A DNA stretch of 64,000 nucleotides from Eunapius fragilis (lineage: Eukaryota > Porifera > Demospongiae > Spongillida > Spongillidae): assembly GCA_963681505.1 (NCBI GenBank), contig OY811971.1, positions 10,225,991 through 10,289,990 of the forward strand. The letters are read 5' to 3'. The translations under genes were made by a program, and so were the position numbers. This document shows, piece by piece, positions 8,123 to 17,100 of this stretch. Numbering within the stretch: position 1 is the first letter of the stretch; each line of letters begins with the position of its first letter. Below the pieces are notes generated by a model. It was given only the letters and a program-made list of their open reading frames with translations. It had not been told where the DNA came from and searched no databases.

Positions 8123-11100
8123 CTCTCTGAAGTCAGCTGCCTCTATGAAGAGCTCTTTAGGGTTCAATAAAATTTTGTGTGTGCCTTTTTTTGGTGCATG
8201 TGGTATGTTAGGAACATCAACCTCCACGTCCTGCATTAAATCGATTTTAAAAAACCATACACTTAATAAGTTCAGAATACATGTACATGCAGCTTGCAAC
8301 ATACCTTATCCAGATTAGTGATTACAACTTTGATTGGTTCCAGGACTGCCATAACCCTAAGACAAAGCATAGATCGCTGAAGGATTGAGTACATCGTGTA
8401 TAACTGATACCAAGTGTGTTTGTTTGGATCAACTGTTCCTCCGATCACAGCACGGTAATTATGCCCCCCCCCCCCCCCCCCCCCCCCCAATAGCTCACAT
8501 CAATTCGAATGGATAATGATGAGATATTGGATGACATCATAATAACAGATGGATCCTGCTTTGGGCCAACTAGCACTTTTGTTGCTGATTAAATACATGT
8601 AAGCACTGCCTCCGAACATTCATCCAAGCGATGCTCTACAACACATCTATCAGGCGATGCAAACGTTTGCTGAAGTTTTTTTCAGCGTCTAAAGACATCA
8701 ATTACATATCTACATGTACATGTAGCGATCAACAACTTTTATGTAATTGAGTACGAAGCCAGAAGTAAACGAAACCAGAAGCCATAACTTAGTGCTACGA
8801 TCATAACACTAAAATGAAACATGACTTTTATTATGACTGGTACTGTATGAAGTGCCATCAATCATAAACACAGCCCCCAAATCTAATCTCAACCTATGCA
8901 CACGTACAGCATGTTTTTAGCAATGTCTCAATGCAACAAACCTTGTGGCAGTGTTATTCAGCTCATCTCGGACACACGCTTCCAGCATGTCTGGATGAAT
9001 TGATACTTGGGCCATGGTCACACCCACCTGCAGCAGACAATAAATGATAATCATGCCAAAACGATGACAACTACTGTTCGTGTACATGTAATTACGTCCA
9101 TACATTATTTTTTAAACCATGAAACTGAAGAAATAGAGCCTTGCTATAGTGTGTGTTACAATTAAATACAATAATTTCCAACATGCGTACGTCCACCTAA
9201 CTTATTTATATACTTGGCCTAGTACCTATTGGTTGCTAGGTATGTACCATACCTAGCAACCAAGAGGAACGACCACCTCCCACACAAAAGTACATACTTA
9301 GCGACCATACTTGCCACAAAACCTACATGCCTGTACAGGCCATCACACGCAGTAACAATTAAAGCAACGCTATTGTGGTTCACTCTCAAGTCTCATAGAA
9401 CAGGCCGAAAATATGTAGGTACTAATAATTCCATGAAGTATTTGTGTTATGCAAGCATGTTATAGAGGTTGCATAGTAACTGTATGCTAGAACAGGTGGT
9501 AAATTAAAAATAATCAGTCCGTGATATTTCATGGACCTGTGGAAGCAAGTGTGGATAATAATTATACCACCCTGGGTCACCACTGCGATAAATCGATTCC
9601 TCCAATGAGGTGCCACTAAAATGTGCCTGTACATGTACATGTACGTGTATGAACATTTAGCACCTCAATTTGTCAAAATGCATTGTCAGGTGTGTACAAT
9701 ATGGAAAACACTTGACATAACCAATTACCGCCAAGAGACGCACATCTGCGTCAATAATGCATTTAACCATTACCAAAGAGTTCTTCCGGACCCTCTGAAA
9801 TATTATACAAATTTGAAGTTATTCATGTTTCAGATTATATTGTTGAAACCGCCTTCTGCTACCTAACATTCCTCTGCTGCCTCATTTTATTGATTTTGAA
9901 CAATTCTACTTTCGTTAAACAAACATATACCGGCATTAATCGGTTAACCATCACCATTAACTACGACTAAGGGTAACTAAGACCGGACATTAAGAATGTT
10001 TGAAATTTCTTCAACCACTGTGCTATGATTAAACACTGTTCAAATGAAGAAACCGTTTTAGGTTTCACACTACATGTAGGTGGAAATTTAATGCTACACA
10101 TTTGTAAGGTCGAAAACATCTTCATACATGTACATCTACATGCAGCTTACAAAGTTACACACACCTTGGCACAGAACTTGTTGATAGCTTCTGGAGGGAA
10201 GCCCCTTCGACGAAGAGCTGTGAGCGTAAATAGCCTCGGATCGTCCCAGTCCCTGCAGATCGGTGCCACTCACATCACACGCTTGTCCAGAAACGCGCAC
10301 ACAAAGCTACAGCTTATTGCCCACCTTACAATTCGCTCCGTGATGAGTTTCACTATTTTCCGTTTGGACACGACGGTGTGATACACGTTGAGTCTGCCGT
10401 ACTCCCACTGCACGGGACAGTACACATCCAGGGCATTGCACAGCCAGTAGTAGGCGGAGCGTCTATGAGCAACACACGTTGCCAAGGTAATCATCACACA
10501 ATTGTAGTGCACAGCAATATTACTGGACATGCATGCAACAGATGTAGATGCACACGTACAGTAGGGGACGCGAAAAAGGTTACGTTCCGTTTAACCAAGA
10601 TGATAGTACGATGGTGTTTAACTTCCTAAGTGAGGAATCTTCAACGCAAAGAGGTTGATGTGTTGATGTTGCACAATGCACCATCATATGAACGCTAGAT
10701 GTGATAACCATTCAGCACGCACGCTAGCTTGTTAGCGAGTCTCAGTGCGCTTACGTATGTAGGCAGTTTAAACGCCACGCTCGTGCTCGCTTCGTCATTT
10801 GAAACGCTCACGATTCGCGATCGCTCTGAGGAAATGTCTATGCGACAGAAAACCAAAGAGATTTTGAAATCTTCGGCACTTGAACATAAGTTGAATCTTG
10901 TAGAAAATAGTCGGTGAACTCATTTTTTATTTCAATTAGAAACCTCTGTTTTGGTCTATTGGCCTGATGAGGAGACGGTCTCAGCTGTTCTGTTAAGTGC
11001 CATCACTTCAAGTGAACGTAATATAGGATGCGTCTGCAATGTTAAAATGGAAAGCAGGAGTACTCTGGGAAGTTGGCAGCAATTGGTGAGTATCATACTT

Positions 11101-14100: not shown

Positions 14101-17100
14101 TCCTTTCTATTGTCTGCGATAACTCATAACGCTTGAGAAAAGCATGTATGCATTTGCGGGTACACGTCAGATTCTCGATCTGAAGCAGTTTACAAATAGT
14201 CGGCGCCTTGTGCCTCATCTGCGAAAGCTGAATTATTTGCTGTTTCTTGTACGCTGAGTACACCGTGTCTTTGATCGACCAAGCACACGCTTATTAGTTT
14301 GAAGCAAGGATATTAAATTGTACTAATAACCGTGTTACGATTTCGTATTAACGAGCGCACAACCAATGTATATATCGTAGAAACGATCATACCGTTACGT
14401 TAAAACGATCATTGATGTACCGTTACCCTAAAGTTTGAACTCCGTGTATTTGACTGTAACACGAAGCTATGTAATCGTGTATATTGCGTGATAACAATAC
14501 GGAACGTAACCTTTTTCGTGTCCCCTACTGTAAATGTTAATGACGGTTAACAGGTTAACCAAGGTTAATGTGGGAGAGACCACGCATGCGCCGTTGAGCG
14601 GTAATCCTCGAGCCACGCGGAAGGGTGGAAGTTGGCAGAGCTAGTCCCTATTCGGTTATTTTTTTGTTTGAGCGGTGTGACATGGATAAGGAGCCTGAAG
14701 CCCAGCCAGGAGCCAGCGGCAGTAAGCCTGAAGCCCAGCCGGGAACCAGTGTCACTTCTGGGTCACTGACGGGGGAAGGCCTAAAAGTTTTGGTACAGTC
14801 CCTGGTGGAGAAAGCCCTGGAGGCAAAGCGGGCTCAGTCTCTCAGCGTGAGACTTACTAGCTCTGGTAAGTATACGTACCGTTGCCGTGTCAGTGCTCCG
14901 ACGAGTACCGTTGACATGTCAGTGCTCCAGCAAGAACCGTTGCGGAGACAGTGCTCCGACAATTTTATGGACCTAGCGAGTAGGGAAGAGATGAGTTGGT
15001 GTATAAGTTGTGTTTTCCATTCTCGATACTCATCCTAGGGGCGGAGCGGCGTATACCAGTACTCACTGGGTTACTTGACATTTTTAGATTCATGTAATTA
15101 TAATTGTACGTATCCTGTAGGTTTTGGGTCCTTACCGTCAACTGAGATGCTGAAGGAGGCGGGTATCCTTATTTGCGGCAATGAGTAGCACATCGGGGGG
15201 TCTGGGTCGGAGCTGGGGGTGGGGTCAAACAGCGTACCCACAGGAACTGAGCAGCTAGGCATTTATGTTGGAGAGGGCATGACCCCAGTCCCGAAAAAAC
15301 TCGCCGAAAAGATCTGGCGGTGGGAATTCGTGGACATGGGGGAGCTATTGCCCGATGGCTGGGCCCAGGGAAAAATTGAGGATGGTATTGCAGGGAGTTC
15401 GATGGCCTTGACTCGCAGGAAGCGCCAGGTGACGGATGTGAACACCAGGGTCCAGTGCTTTGTGATGTATTCAAGCGTCCTTTCTTGAAAACACCCAGAG
15501 GTGGTGCCCAAACTCCTCGCGTACATGGTATCAATAATGAATGCGGGCTCCGAGTACACTGGCCTAGCGCAGGCCCAATATGACTCCGCATATCGCCGTC
15601 AAGCGGCTAGCACGGGAAATAGGAGGTGGTCTGGTGTGAACCCTTCCCTGTACTCGGTGTGCTTCACGGGGAAGGCGTTAAGCAGACCACGTTGTAATGT
15701 GTGTGCGTCGGGGTATCATGTAGTGAAGGACTGCCCTTTCTCAACTAAGTCGGACATTGAGCAAACACTGGAGGCGGTGATGTCAGTGTGCGCCCCTCGA
15801 GTAGGTGGGCCGGGCTCGGGCAATCAAACTATAGGGTAGTTGGTCCTCTCAGCTCACCGCGATCTCATTCGATCCACGTGAGCAGGTTTGGGGTGATTCC
15901 CAAAGGCAGTAGTGGGAAGTGGAGACTCGTACTGGACCTCTCTTCACCGGAGGGGGCAAGCGTGAACAGTGGTATCGATAAGACACTGTGCTCACTGTCC
16001 TATGCAACCGTAGATGAAGCAGTCAGTCAGGTGGTGCATTTGGGAAGGGGGGCACTGATGGCAAAATTAGACATAAAAACCACATATCGGCTTGTCCCGG
16101 ATCAGACGGATGCAACGATGCTGTGGGCAGCGGCCTATATGCGCTTCTTCGGGTTTTTGCAGTCAGGAGAAATAGTCGTCCCGTCTGCCACGACGTGCAA
16201 CCCAGCGGTACACTTGAGCTATGGCGATGTAAAGGCAGATAATATATCAACACTGCAATACATTGAAGTGATAATTAAAGCATCGAAAACTGATCCATTC
16301 TGGAAAGGAGTGACAGTTTATTTGGGATCCACGGGGGCGACTCTGTGCCCTGTGGCGGCTATATGGTAATCCGGGGTTCACGGCCTGGCCCGTTCACCCT
16401 GTTCAAGGATGGGCATTCCCTGACCCGGGACCGCCTAGTAACAGAAATGCGGAAGGCTACGTCTCTAGCCAGGGTTGACTCCAAGCACTACTCGGGGCAT
16501 AGTTTCAGGATTGGGGCTGCAACTACCGCGGCGGCGAGGGGTTTGCAAGATTCCCTCATAAAAACCCTGGGTAGATGGGAGAGCGCAGCCTACACGTTGT
16601 ACATCAGGACCCCAAGGTCGGAACTATGTGCAGTGGCATCGAGGCTGATTTCCAACTAGGTGTAGAGAGGGTTCATTGAACTGGTTGTACCTATAATTAT
16701 ATTCAATTATTAATAGAAGGTATATTTTTGCTTGGGGGGAGGGGTTGTTCCTACCGTCACTCTCCCTCCATGGGGATGGGGACCACAGGCTCCCCACGGG
16801 TATTACTCCCCAAGCTCATATGGGAGGGTTACCTGCCCACAAGCTCCCCAAGCGTTAGATACCGCCAGAACTAGGTACAGTTAGGACGGAGCTTGTCTTG
16901 CAACACAATCGACTCCCGACTACACATTAACTATGAGAATCCTCCGCTCGAAACATACGCATACATGTAGAGCAGTCAAATGTGGTCACATGGTTAATAC
17001 ATCACAAGTAGGTCACATGAGAAAAGAAAAGAATGATGTACATCATAATCACCTTTTGGGAATTCCTCTATATTAAATAAATTATGCATCAAGAACTGGG

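What the first reader, a model, noticed from the sequence alone, without database searches (positions are those of the whole stretch)
10559..14530. A Tc1/mariner-type element whose catalytic domain is replaced by a multi-exon BEN-domain gene
Seen: inverted TA-flanked termini, a transposase that stops after the DNA-binding part, and a spliced BEN-domain gene in the opposite orientation filling the rest. Known: Tc1/mariner elements normally carry only one transposase gene, and BEN domains bind DNA or chromatin proteins. Inference: the element captured a chromatin-factor gene, or BEN proteins are a regular passenger of this family, possibly influencing silencing or mobilisation.
Basis: partly seen in the sequence, partly recalled or inferred. 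Interest (0 to 1): 0.72.

Follow-up and report, generated by a model that had tools for sequence, protein, structure and literature searches.

The report
Jumping gene carrying a chromatin-binding gene
This stretch is a broken copy of a jumping gene that regularly carries a second gene for a BEN-type DNA-binding protein, and the pair has travelled together through at least ten branches of the family in one genome, which suggests that the jumping gene uses a chromatin factor of its own.

Summary
The 3,972-bp element (TA-flanked 32-bp ends) is an internally deleted copy. A sister copy (5,549 bp, L009) has an open DD34E Tc1 transposase frame and an open BEN last exon, convergent; L010 (6.3 kb, transposase frame broken) and a relative at C2:6882413-6889995 also have both genes between their ends. 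The window copy lost the catalytic part, and its BEN gene has frame breaks.

BEN is a standing second gene of a Tc1 lineage: 45 of 63 BEN loci have a convergent lineage transposase within 7 kb (about 0.5 expected within 10 kb); of other DDE_3 matches, 1 of 26 has a BEN nearby. Ten subfamilies show matching BEN and transposase divergence (Mantel r 0.85; 4 of 7 splits shared), and BEN is constrained between them. One complete 5.2-kb unit interrupts a satellite with a TA duplication.

A tandem array lies between the genes in 9 of 10 subfamilies, with related units in four. Array, repeat-rich protein and faster-diverging second gene mirror plant VANC anti-silencing proteins; that mechanism is inferred.

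The parts
10557..10558 (.). TA target-site copy, left
10559..10590 (+). left terminal inverted repeat (BEN-gene side)
10940..11085 (+). predicted BEN-gene exon ([11 protein letters not shown]...[16 protein letters not shown] in sister copies); frame-shifted in this copy; SH3/Tudor-like by eye only, no Pfam hit
   Evidence: borders read by eye
11417..11814 (.). separate dispersed repeat of about 398 bp, absent from both sister copies
12079..12120 (+). predicted BEN-gene exon (lysine-rich), GT-AG borders read by eye
12341..12445 (+). predicted BEN-gene exon, GT-AG borders read by eye
12504..12570 (+). predicted BEN-gene exon, in phase with the next, borders read by eye
12633..13634 (+). last BEN-gene exon: charged stretch (helical by eye), Ser/Gln/Pro tandem peptide repeats, BEN domain; split into two frames here, one 385-aa frame in L009
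13311..13631 (+). BEN domain (107 aa), 99% identical to the L009 copy
13738..13912 (+). remnant (2.9 units) of the central tandem array; 16.5 units of 65 bp in L009
13901..14278 (-). N-terminal 126 residues of the Tc1 transposase; the rest deleted
14499..14530 (-). right terminal inverted repeat (transposase side)
14531..14532 (.). TA target-site copy, right
18816..19321 (.). 506-bp MITE of the same TIR group, TA-flanked: fusion of the two ends of an element like C2:6882413-6889995; no array motif, no genes

Best explanation
Shown: the feature is an internally deleted copy of a two-gene Tc1-type (DD34E) transposon. The full element carries a DDE transposase and, convergent to it, a BEN-domain gene (predicted multi-exon), with a tandem-repeat array between their 3' ends. 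The whole unit inserts at TA sites and has diversified into at least ten subfamilies in this genome, with BEN and transposase diverging together. Inferred: the BEN product is an element-encoded DNA-binding chromatin factor that recognises the element's own central array (perhaps other non-coding parts) and keeps the element expressible, most likely by countering silencing, as VANC does for plant VANDAL elements. My confidence is about 0.9 for the anatomy and lineage and about 0.35 for anti-silencing through the array; the figure below is for the combined statement with the mechanism read loosely (BEN acts in favour of its own element through DNA binding).
For: Anatomy: L009 (5,549 bp) and L010 (6,268 bp) share TIRs, BEN gene, array and transposase region, next to TA with different flanks. 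L009 transposase: DDE_3 1.7e-19, Sleeping Beauty catalytic domain 3e-23, 34 residues between D2 and E (counted by eye on the translation). Other TIR types: subfamily B, C9:8670040-8675284, end repeats 57 bp long including TA with 2 mismatches, in-register satellite empty site; subfamily A, C1:538793-543412; related ends at C2:6882413-6889995. Association: 44 of 63 BEN loci by the nearest-transposase rule, 45 of 63 by any convergent partner within 7 kb; other DDE_3: 1 of 26. Co-divergence: Mantel r 0.85, p 5e-5, n 10; 4 of 7 splits shared, 3 of 5000 permutations. Constraint: BEN dN 0.24-0.40 in six between-subfamily comparisons in which dS is saturated (five) or about 3 (one). Array: in 9 of 10 subfamilies; unit similarity in the same orientation between W, C2:6882, C11:7504 and C4:4779, 5 of 36 non-redundant pairs at 0 of 300 shuffles; 482 pattern matches in the genome vs 2 for the reversed control; 82 of the 100 listed places lie between a BEN and a convergent transposase, all 82 oriented with BEN, in four elements. 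VANC parallels: tandem-repeat targets, tandem peptide repeats in the protein, second gene less conserved than the transposase (vs 43, 46). A MITE with related ends lacks the array motif, and 35 of 41 end pairs are under 700 bp, so the array is probably not needed in cis for transposition.
Against: No binding, expression or methylation data exist. Subfamily C9:7197700 has no array between its genes, and no second end matching its transposase-side end was found in the letters fetched. Units of subfamilies A, B, C1:23923, C2:6873 and C1:6579 resemble the common unit weakly, only in the opposite orientation, or not detectably. blastn at E 1e-3 aligns the array of L009 only with C2:6882, not with C4, C11 or C9:2143, so deep unit conservation rests on monomer-consensus alignments and a pattern search; 18 of the 100 listed pattern places lie outside BEN-transposase pairs. 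Array units share no 8-mer with the terminal 250 bp at either end. 42 of 87 lineage transposase loci have no convergent partner among the 63 BEN loci; 33 of the 42 span under 800 bp (13 of 45 among paired loci), but 9 are longer, one of which has a BEN seen only by Pfam, so BEN-less members are not excluded. Only 3 places in the genome match PF10523 at E up to 0.001.
Confidence: 0.6

Rival explanations
1. The BEN protein is a transposition co-factor: it binds the ends (or array) and helps to assemble or target the transposase complex.
For: Accessory DNA-binding proteins occur in other superfamilies (recalled); DBD1 of Tn3 TnpA has a BEN-like fold and reads the inverted repeat (PMC9579193, one passage). 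BEN and transposase co-diverge.
Against: No 8-mer is shared between the array unit and the terminal 250 bp at either end of L009. TIRs are recognised by the transposase alone in known Tc1 elements (recalled). Short copies, probably without the array, multiplied (one read in full), although BEN could act on them in trans.
Confidence: 0.25
2. The BEN protein is a self-regulator: it limits or insulates expression, for example as a boundary factor at the array between the convergent genes, preventing antisense read-through.
For: BEN proteins act at chromatin boundaries (Elba, PMC3510454, title and abstract start in the listing); the array sits between the convergent 3' ends in 9 of 10 subfamilies, oriented with BEN in the four elements checked.
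Against: No expression data. The array varies in length (16.5 units in L009; about 57 by spacing at C1:19363386-19366833) and is absent in one subfamily.
Confidence: 0.25
3. BEN is a neutral or host-beneficial captured gene carried as cargo, with no role for the transposon.
For: BEN genes are ordinary animal chromatin genes; capture of host genes by DNA transposons is known (recalled).
Against: It persists in at least 10 diverged subfamilies with dN far below saturated dS and a constant convergent layout; neutral cargo would decay.
Confidence: 0.08
4. Chance: two insertions flank a host BEN gene, or nested unrelated elements.
For: None found.
Against: Three copies at different loci with the same ends and content; 45 of 63 BEN loci paired; empty satellite site for a complete unit.
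Confidence: 0.01

Closest known systems
Tc1 group of Tc1/mariner (for example Sleeping Beauty)
   Same: TA target, CAGT... inverted ends, DD34E transposase with significant similarity to Sleeping Beauty
   Different: second gene (BEN), central tandem array, short intron in the transposase gene; 4.0-7.6 kb in the elements whose ends were read
VANDAL transposons with VANC anti-silencing proteins (Arabidopsis; PMC5735166, abstract and section 9 read)
   Same: element-encoded second protein with variable tandem-peptide regions, less conserved than the transposase; tandem repeats in non-coding element DNA varying between relatives
   Different: unrelated transposase (MuDR type, recalled); VANC domains DUF1985/DUF287 did not appear in Pfam scans of BEN-gene exons; binding and anti-silencing are shown there, not here
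Kolobok lineages with accessory proteins (PMC9587614, abstract and three passages read)
   Same: animal DDE transposons whose lineages keep a distinct second protein
   Different: another superfamily; the accessory proteins named are nucleases, a helicase or KolX, not BEN
BEN-domain chromatin proteins (BANP, BEND3, NACC1)
   Same: BEN domain; sequence-specific DNA binding expected
   Different: host genes; here the BEN gene lies inside a transposon. BANP/BEND3 prefer unmethylated CpG motifs (PMC11472053, abstract start in the listing)
Tn3 TnpA DBD1 (PMC9579193, one passage)
   Same: BEN-like fold in a transposition protein
   Different: bacterial; part of the transposase, not a separate gene

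Membership tests
Tc1/mariner (Tc1 group) | terminal inverted repeats and TA target duplication | tested here: met
   in-register empty site for subfamily B; subfamily A shows TG, not TA, on its left side
Tc1/mariner (Tc1 group) | DD34E transposase | tested here: met
   sister copy L009: DDE_3 1.7e-19, Sleeping Beauty 3e-23, 34 residues between D2 and E counted by eye on the translation; the window copy lacks this part
Tc1/mariner (Tc1 group) | paired HTH DNA-binding part | tested here: inconclusive
   HTH_32 E 0.016 and HTH_Tnp_Tc3_2 E 0.054, both below cut-off
BEN domain (PF10523) | match to the family profile | tested here: met
   met for the family, not for the window copy alone: window domain 14 bits, cut-off 23.2, not listed within its long frame; 7 of 18 members match at E up to 1, best 1.3e-7; C1:23923413 at 32.2 bits, over cut-off
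BEN domain (PF10523) | BEN fold | not testable with these tools
   structure prediction switched off; sequence searches of solved chains found no BEN entry
VANDAL/VANC | DUF1985/DUF287 domains in the second protein | tested here: not met
   not among Pfam hits for the last-exon frames of the window and L009, the L009:2169-2450 exon frame, or the N-terminal exon peptides; so an analogy, not a member
VANDAL/VANC | second protein binds tandem repeats in the element and removes methylation | not testable with these tools
   only the tandem arrays are seen
Kolobok with accessory protein | Kolobok DDE transposase | tested here: not met
   transposase matches DDE_3 and Sleeping Beauty; TA duplication

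The most novel reading that the evidence does not exclude
An animal Tc1 lineage has evolved a VANC-like anti-silencing system independently of plants: each element encodes a BEN protein that binds the tandem array between its two genes and keeps the element unmethylated or open, with protein and array co-evolving between subfamilies.
Probability: 0.3. Interest if true: 0.9.

Novelty: new variant of a known kind. Interest (0 to 1): 0.75.

Why it matters
Tc1/mariner elements are the textbook one-gene transposons. A lineage that has kept a chromatin-type DNA-binding gene through at least ten subfamilies, with a central array in nine of them, shows that these elements can carry their own regulators. 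It gives a concrete system in which transposon anti-silencing outside plants can be tested, and a possible source of BEN genes in animal genomes. I found no report of a BEN gene inside a Tc1/mariner element in an open-access library: seven searches held the term BEN domain, two asked for second genes in Tc1 elements, one for VANC. Subscription papers, preprints and Repbase were not searchable.

Tried and rejected
Replacement of the catalytic domain: rejected, because sister copies have both genes. Two flanking insertions around a host gene: rejected. Paralogous empty site for the window copy: none found with joined flanks; the right flank from about 14540 is itself repeated. Terminal regions as binding-site donors: no shared 8-mer with the array unit. 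BEN among solved chains: no hit. N-terminal exon module: no Pfam hit. L009 last exon given whole: no BEN hit. Organism: not identified; I suspect a sponge or similar invertebrate, untested. ACATGT (the NACC1 site, PMC7764960, abstract start in the listing) is over-represented in the element (13 vs 2.4 expected) but also in the rest of the window (63 vs 31.9), so it is not used as evidence.

My odds did not change.

Rows left out and limits: trees and identities use 10 representatives of 23 BEN-transposase pairs whose letters I held, out of 45 pairs. Alignment A1 has 18 of the 30 BEN loci fetched: 22 were tried first, L024, L026, L031 and L032 were dropped after a stop in L024 stopped, and 8 more had been left out as redundant. 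Listings show 100 of 107 and 100 of 482 places. One search scored 40 of 122 candidates and one search scored 109 of 404, so copy counts are lower bounds. The header printed says 500 shuffles; 300 were run.
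Full report
What is there. The element at 10559-14530 has 32-bp ends (39-nt arms at 92%, the longest inverted repeat of the region) and TA on both sides. Inside are a BEN-type coding region on the + strand, a short tandem array, and the first 126 residues of a Tc1 transposase on the - strand. A 398-bp dispersed repeat (11417-11814) is absent from the sister copies and so a later insertion.

Sister copies. A genome search (40 of 122 candidates scored) found two more copies between the same ends: C1:15558054-15563602 (L009; main blocks 90-93% identical) and C5:7458389-7464656 (L010; main blocks 76-87%), each next to TA with different flanks, plus two fragments (C20:5232437-5233160, C12:5282432). 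L009 holds a 377-aa transposase frame and a 385-aa last BEN exon, convergent. The transposase matches DDE_3 (1.7e-19) and Sleeping Beauty (3e-23); D2 and E are 34 residues apart (counted by eye on the translation). A short GT-AG intron, in frame in L009, interrupts it, and many hits to relatives break at about residues 184-203. L010 has broken transposase frames and a nested 655-bp insertion whose ends carry another TIR type. Against L009 the window copy lacks the rest of the array and the transposase beyond residue 126, so the "stop after the DNA-binding part" is an internal deletion, not a replacement. Its BEN gene is also broken: a split last-exon frame and a frame shift in an upstream exon.

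Is it BEN? The window domain alone reaches 14 bits against a cut-off of 23.2 and is not listed within its long frame, nor is that of L009. Seven of 18 aligned members match PF10523 at E up to 1, the weak window match among them, best 1.3e-7. In the genome three places match the family at E up to 0.001; one (C1:23923413) is a 50%-identical relative in a transposase pair, another (C1:13449352) lies next to a lineage transposase and was missed by the BEN query.

A lineage, not one event. The BEN domain has 67 matches in the genome, merging to 63 loci. The L009 transposase has 130, merging to 87, with 109 of 404 candidates scored. By the nearest-partner rule 44 of 63 BEN loci have a convergent transposase within 7 kb; allowing any convergent partner, 45. 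About 0.5 BEN loci within 10 kb of a transposase are expected by chance. Near-identical copies inflate these counts, so I reduced the 23 pairs with letters in hand to 10 subfamilies: BEN identity between them is 31-69%, transposase 53-85%, with strongly correlated distances (Mantel r 0.85, p 5e-5). The two trees share 4 of 7 splits, reached in 3 of 5000 label permutations. The simplest reading is one capture followed by joint descent. As a control, of 82 DDE_3 matches in the genome, 56 belong to the lineage and 38 of these have a convergent BEN; of the other 26, one has a BEN within 7 kb (C20:356093, itself a convergent pair). Against this, 42 of 87 transposase loci have no partner among the 63 BEN loci: 33 of them span under 800 bp (13 of 45 among the paired), 9 are longer, and one of those 9 has the Pfam-only BEN. 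BEN-less members are therefore possible.

Other termini. C2:6882413-6889995 (7.6 kb; BEN 69%) has both genes between related ends. A subfamily B element at C9:8670040-8675284 has end repeats of another sequence (57 bp including TA, 2 mismatches) and interrupts a 25-bp satellite that continues in register when one TA is kept: an empty site for the whole two-gene unit. Subfamily A (C1:538793-543412) has 49-bp ends; its left flank shows TG, not TA. For C9:7197700 no second end was found in the letters fetched.

Selection. In six between-subfamily comparisons BEN dN is 0.24-0.40 while dS is beyond calculation (five) or about 3 (one). Within the window subfamily, window against L009 gives dN 0.004 and dS 0.056 for BEN on 5 changes. 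Several recent comparisons show ratios of 0.7-0.8, for BEN on very few changes and for the transposase on more, as expected for decaying copies.

The central array. Between the 3' ends of the two genes lies a tandem array in 9 of 10 subfamilies (units 28-142 bp); C9:7197700 lacks one. For C1:6579 only the transposase side was seen. Unit consensus sequences of W, C2:6882, C11:7504 and C4:4779 (with its near-identical relative C9:2143) are related in the same orientation: without C9:2143, 5 of 36 pairs at 0 of 300 mononucleotide shuffles (W-C2, W-C11, W-C4, C2-C11, C2-C4); C11-C4 was not among the pairs reported as low. Weaker forward links are B-C1:23923 (2 of 300), C1:23923-C2:6873 (3) and C2:6882-C1:6579 (6); three pairs are low only in the opposite orientation at 0 of 300 (W-C1:23923, A-C1:23923, A-C2:6873). 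The pattern GTGTGGTC-N14..26-TGGGGTTA occurs 482 times against 2 for the reversed control. Of the 100 places listed, all on contig C1, 82 lie between a BEN and a convergent transposase (four elements: 12, 3, 15 and 52), all oriented with BEN, and 18 lie elsewhere, one beside a BEN fragment. Plain blastn at E 1e-3 does not align the L009 array with C4, C11 or C9:2143. BEN exons of several subfamilies carry tandem repeats that differ between subfamilies, Ser/Gln/Pro-rich in the window group.

MITEs. Of 41 +/- end pairs among the 100 listed hits, 35 are under 700 bp (median 506). The one in the window (18816-19321) is a fusion of the two ends of a C2:6882-like element, without array motif or genes; the others were not read in full. 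The ends are thus probably enough in cis for spread, which speaks against an array role in the transposition step itself.

How it works. Shown: mobile two-gene unit, joint descent, constraint, array. Inferred: BEN binds DNA, probably the array, and acts in favour of its own element. VANC proteins of plant VANDAL elements offer the closest mechanism: their targets often form tandem repeats that vary between relatives, the proteins' variable regions often carry tandem peptide motifs, and the VANA transposase is more conserved (PMC5735166, abstract and section 9). All three traits are seen here. The VANC domains are not, so this is an analogy, not membership. BANP and BEND3 prefer unmethylated CpG motifs (PMC11472053, abstract start in the listing), which makes a link to methylation plausible. 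Rivals are a transposition co-factor (BEN-like fold in Tn3 TnpA, PMC9579193, one passage) and an insulator or brake between convergent genes.

Literature. Ten searches of an open-access library were made: seven with the term BEN domain, two on second genes in Tc1 elements, one on VANC. None of the titles and abstract starts listed reports a BEN gene inside a Tc1/mariner element. The BEN mention in PMC5704228 is a reference title, and that in PMC10602864 concerns the host gene BEND3. Repbase, preprints and closed papers were not searched.

Noticed in passing
window 18816-19321: TA-flanked 506-bp MITE formed from the two ends of a C2:6882-like BEN element; 35 such short end pairs among the 100 listed end hits.
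   Followed up: yes
window 10273-10590 (-): Exon-like stretch matching class I tRNA synthetase (PF00749, 4.9e-9), directly left of the element; a 78%-identical stretch lies at C16:4386413. The element may sit in or beside an intron of such a gene.
   Followed up: partly
window 23676-25553 (+): Open 625-aa pogo/Tc5-type transposase frame (DDE_1 4.4e-35, HTH_Tnp_Tc5 5.6e-8).
   Followed up: partly
window 44722-45828 and 50602-51624 (+): Two near-identical frames of a likely seven-helix membrane protein (by eye; no Pfam hit for the first, second not scanned).
   Followed up: no
window 54109-60558: About 6 kb of repetitive sequence, open in several minus-strand frames.
   Followed up: no
window, whole: TACATGTA far above dinucleotide expectation in and outside the element (10 vs 0.1; 39 vs 1.8); ACATGT is the NACC1 BEN site. 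Possibly a genome-wide trait, not tested.
   Followed up: partly
C11:7578973-7579167: BEN match over Pfam's cut-off, about 75 kb from the nearest lineage transposase found on that contig: candidate host BEN gene.
   Followed up: no
L010:3187-3841: Nested 655-bp insertion whose ends (TACAGTACCGGTCAAAATAA) are like the end at C9:7195784 of another subfamily.
   Followed up: no
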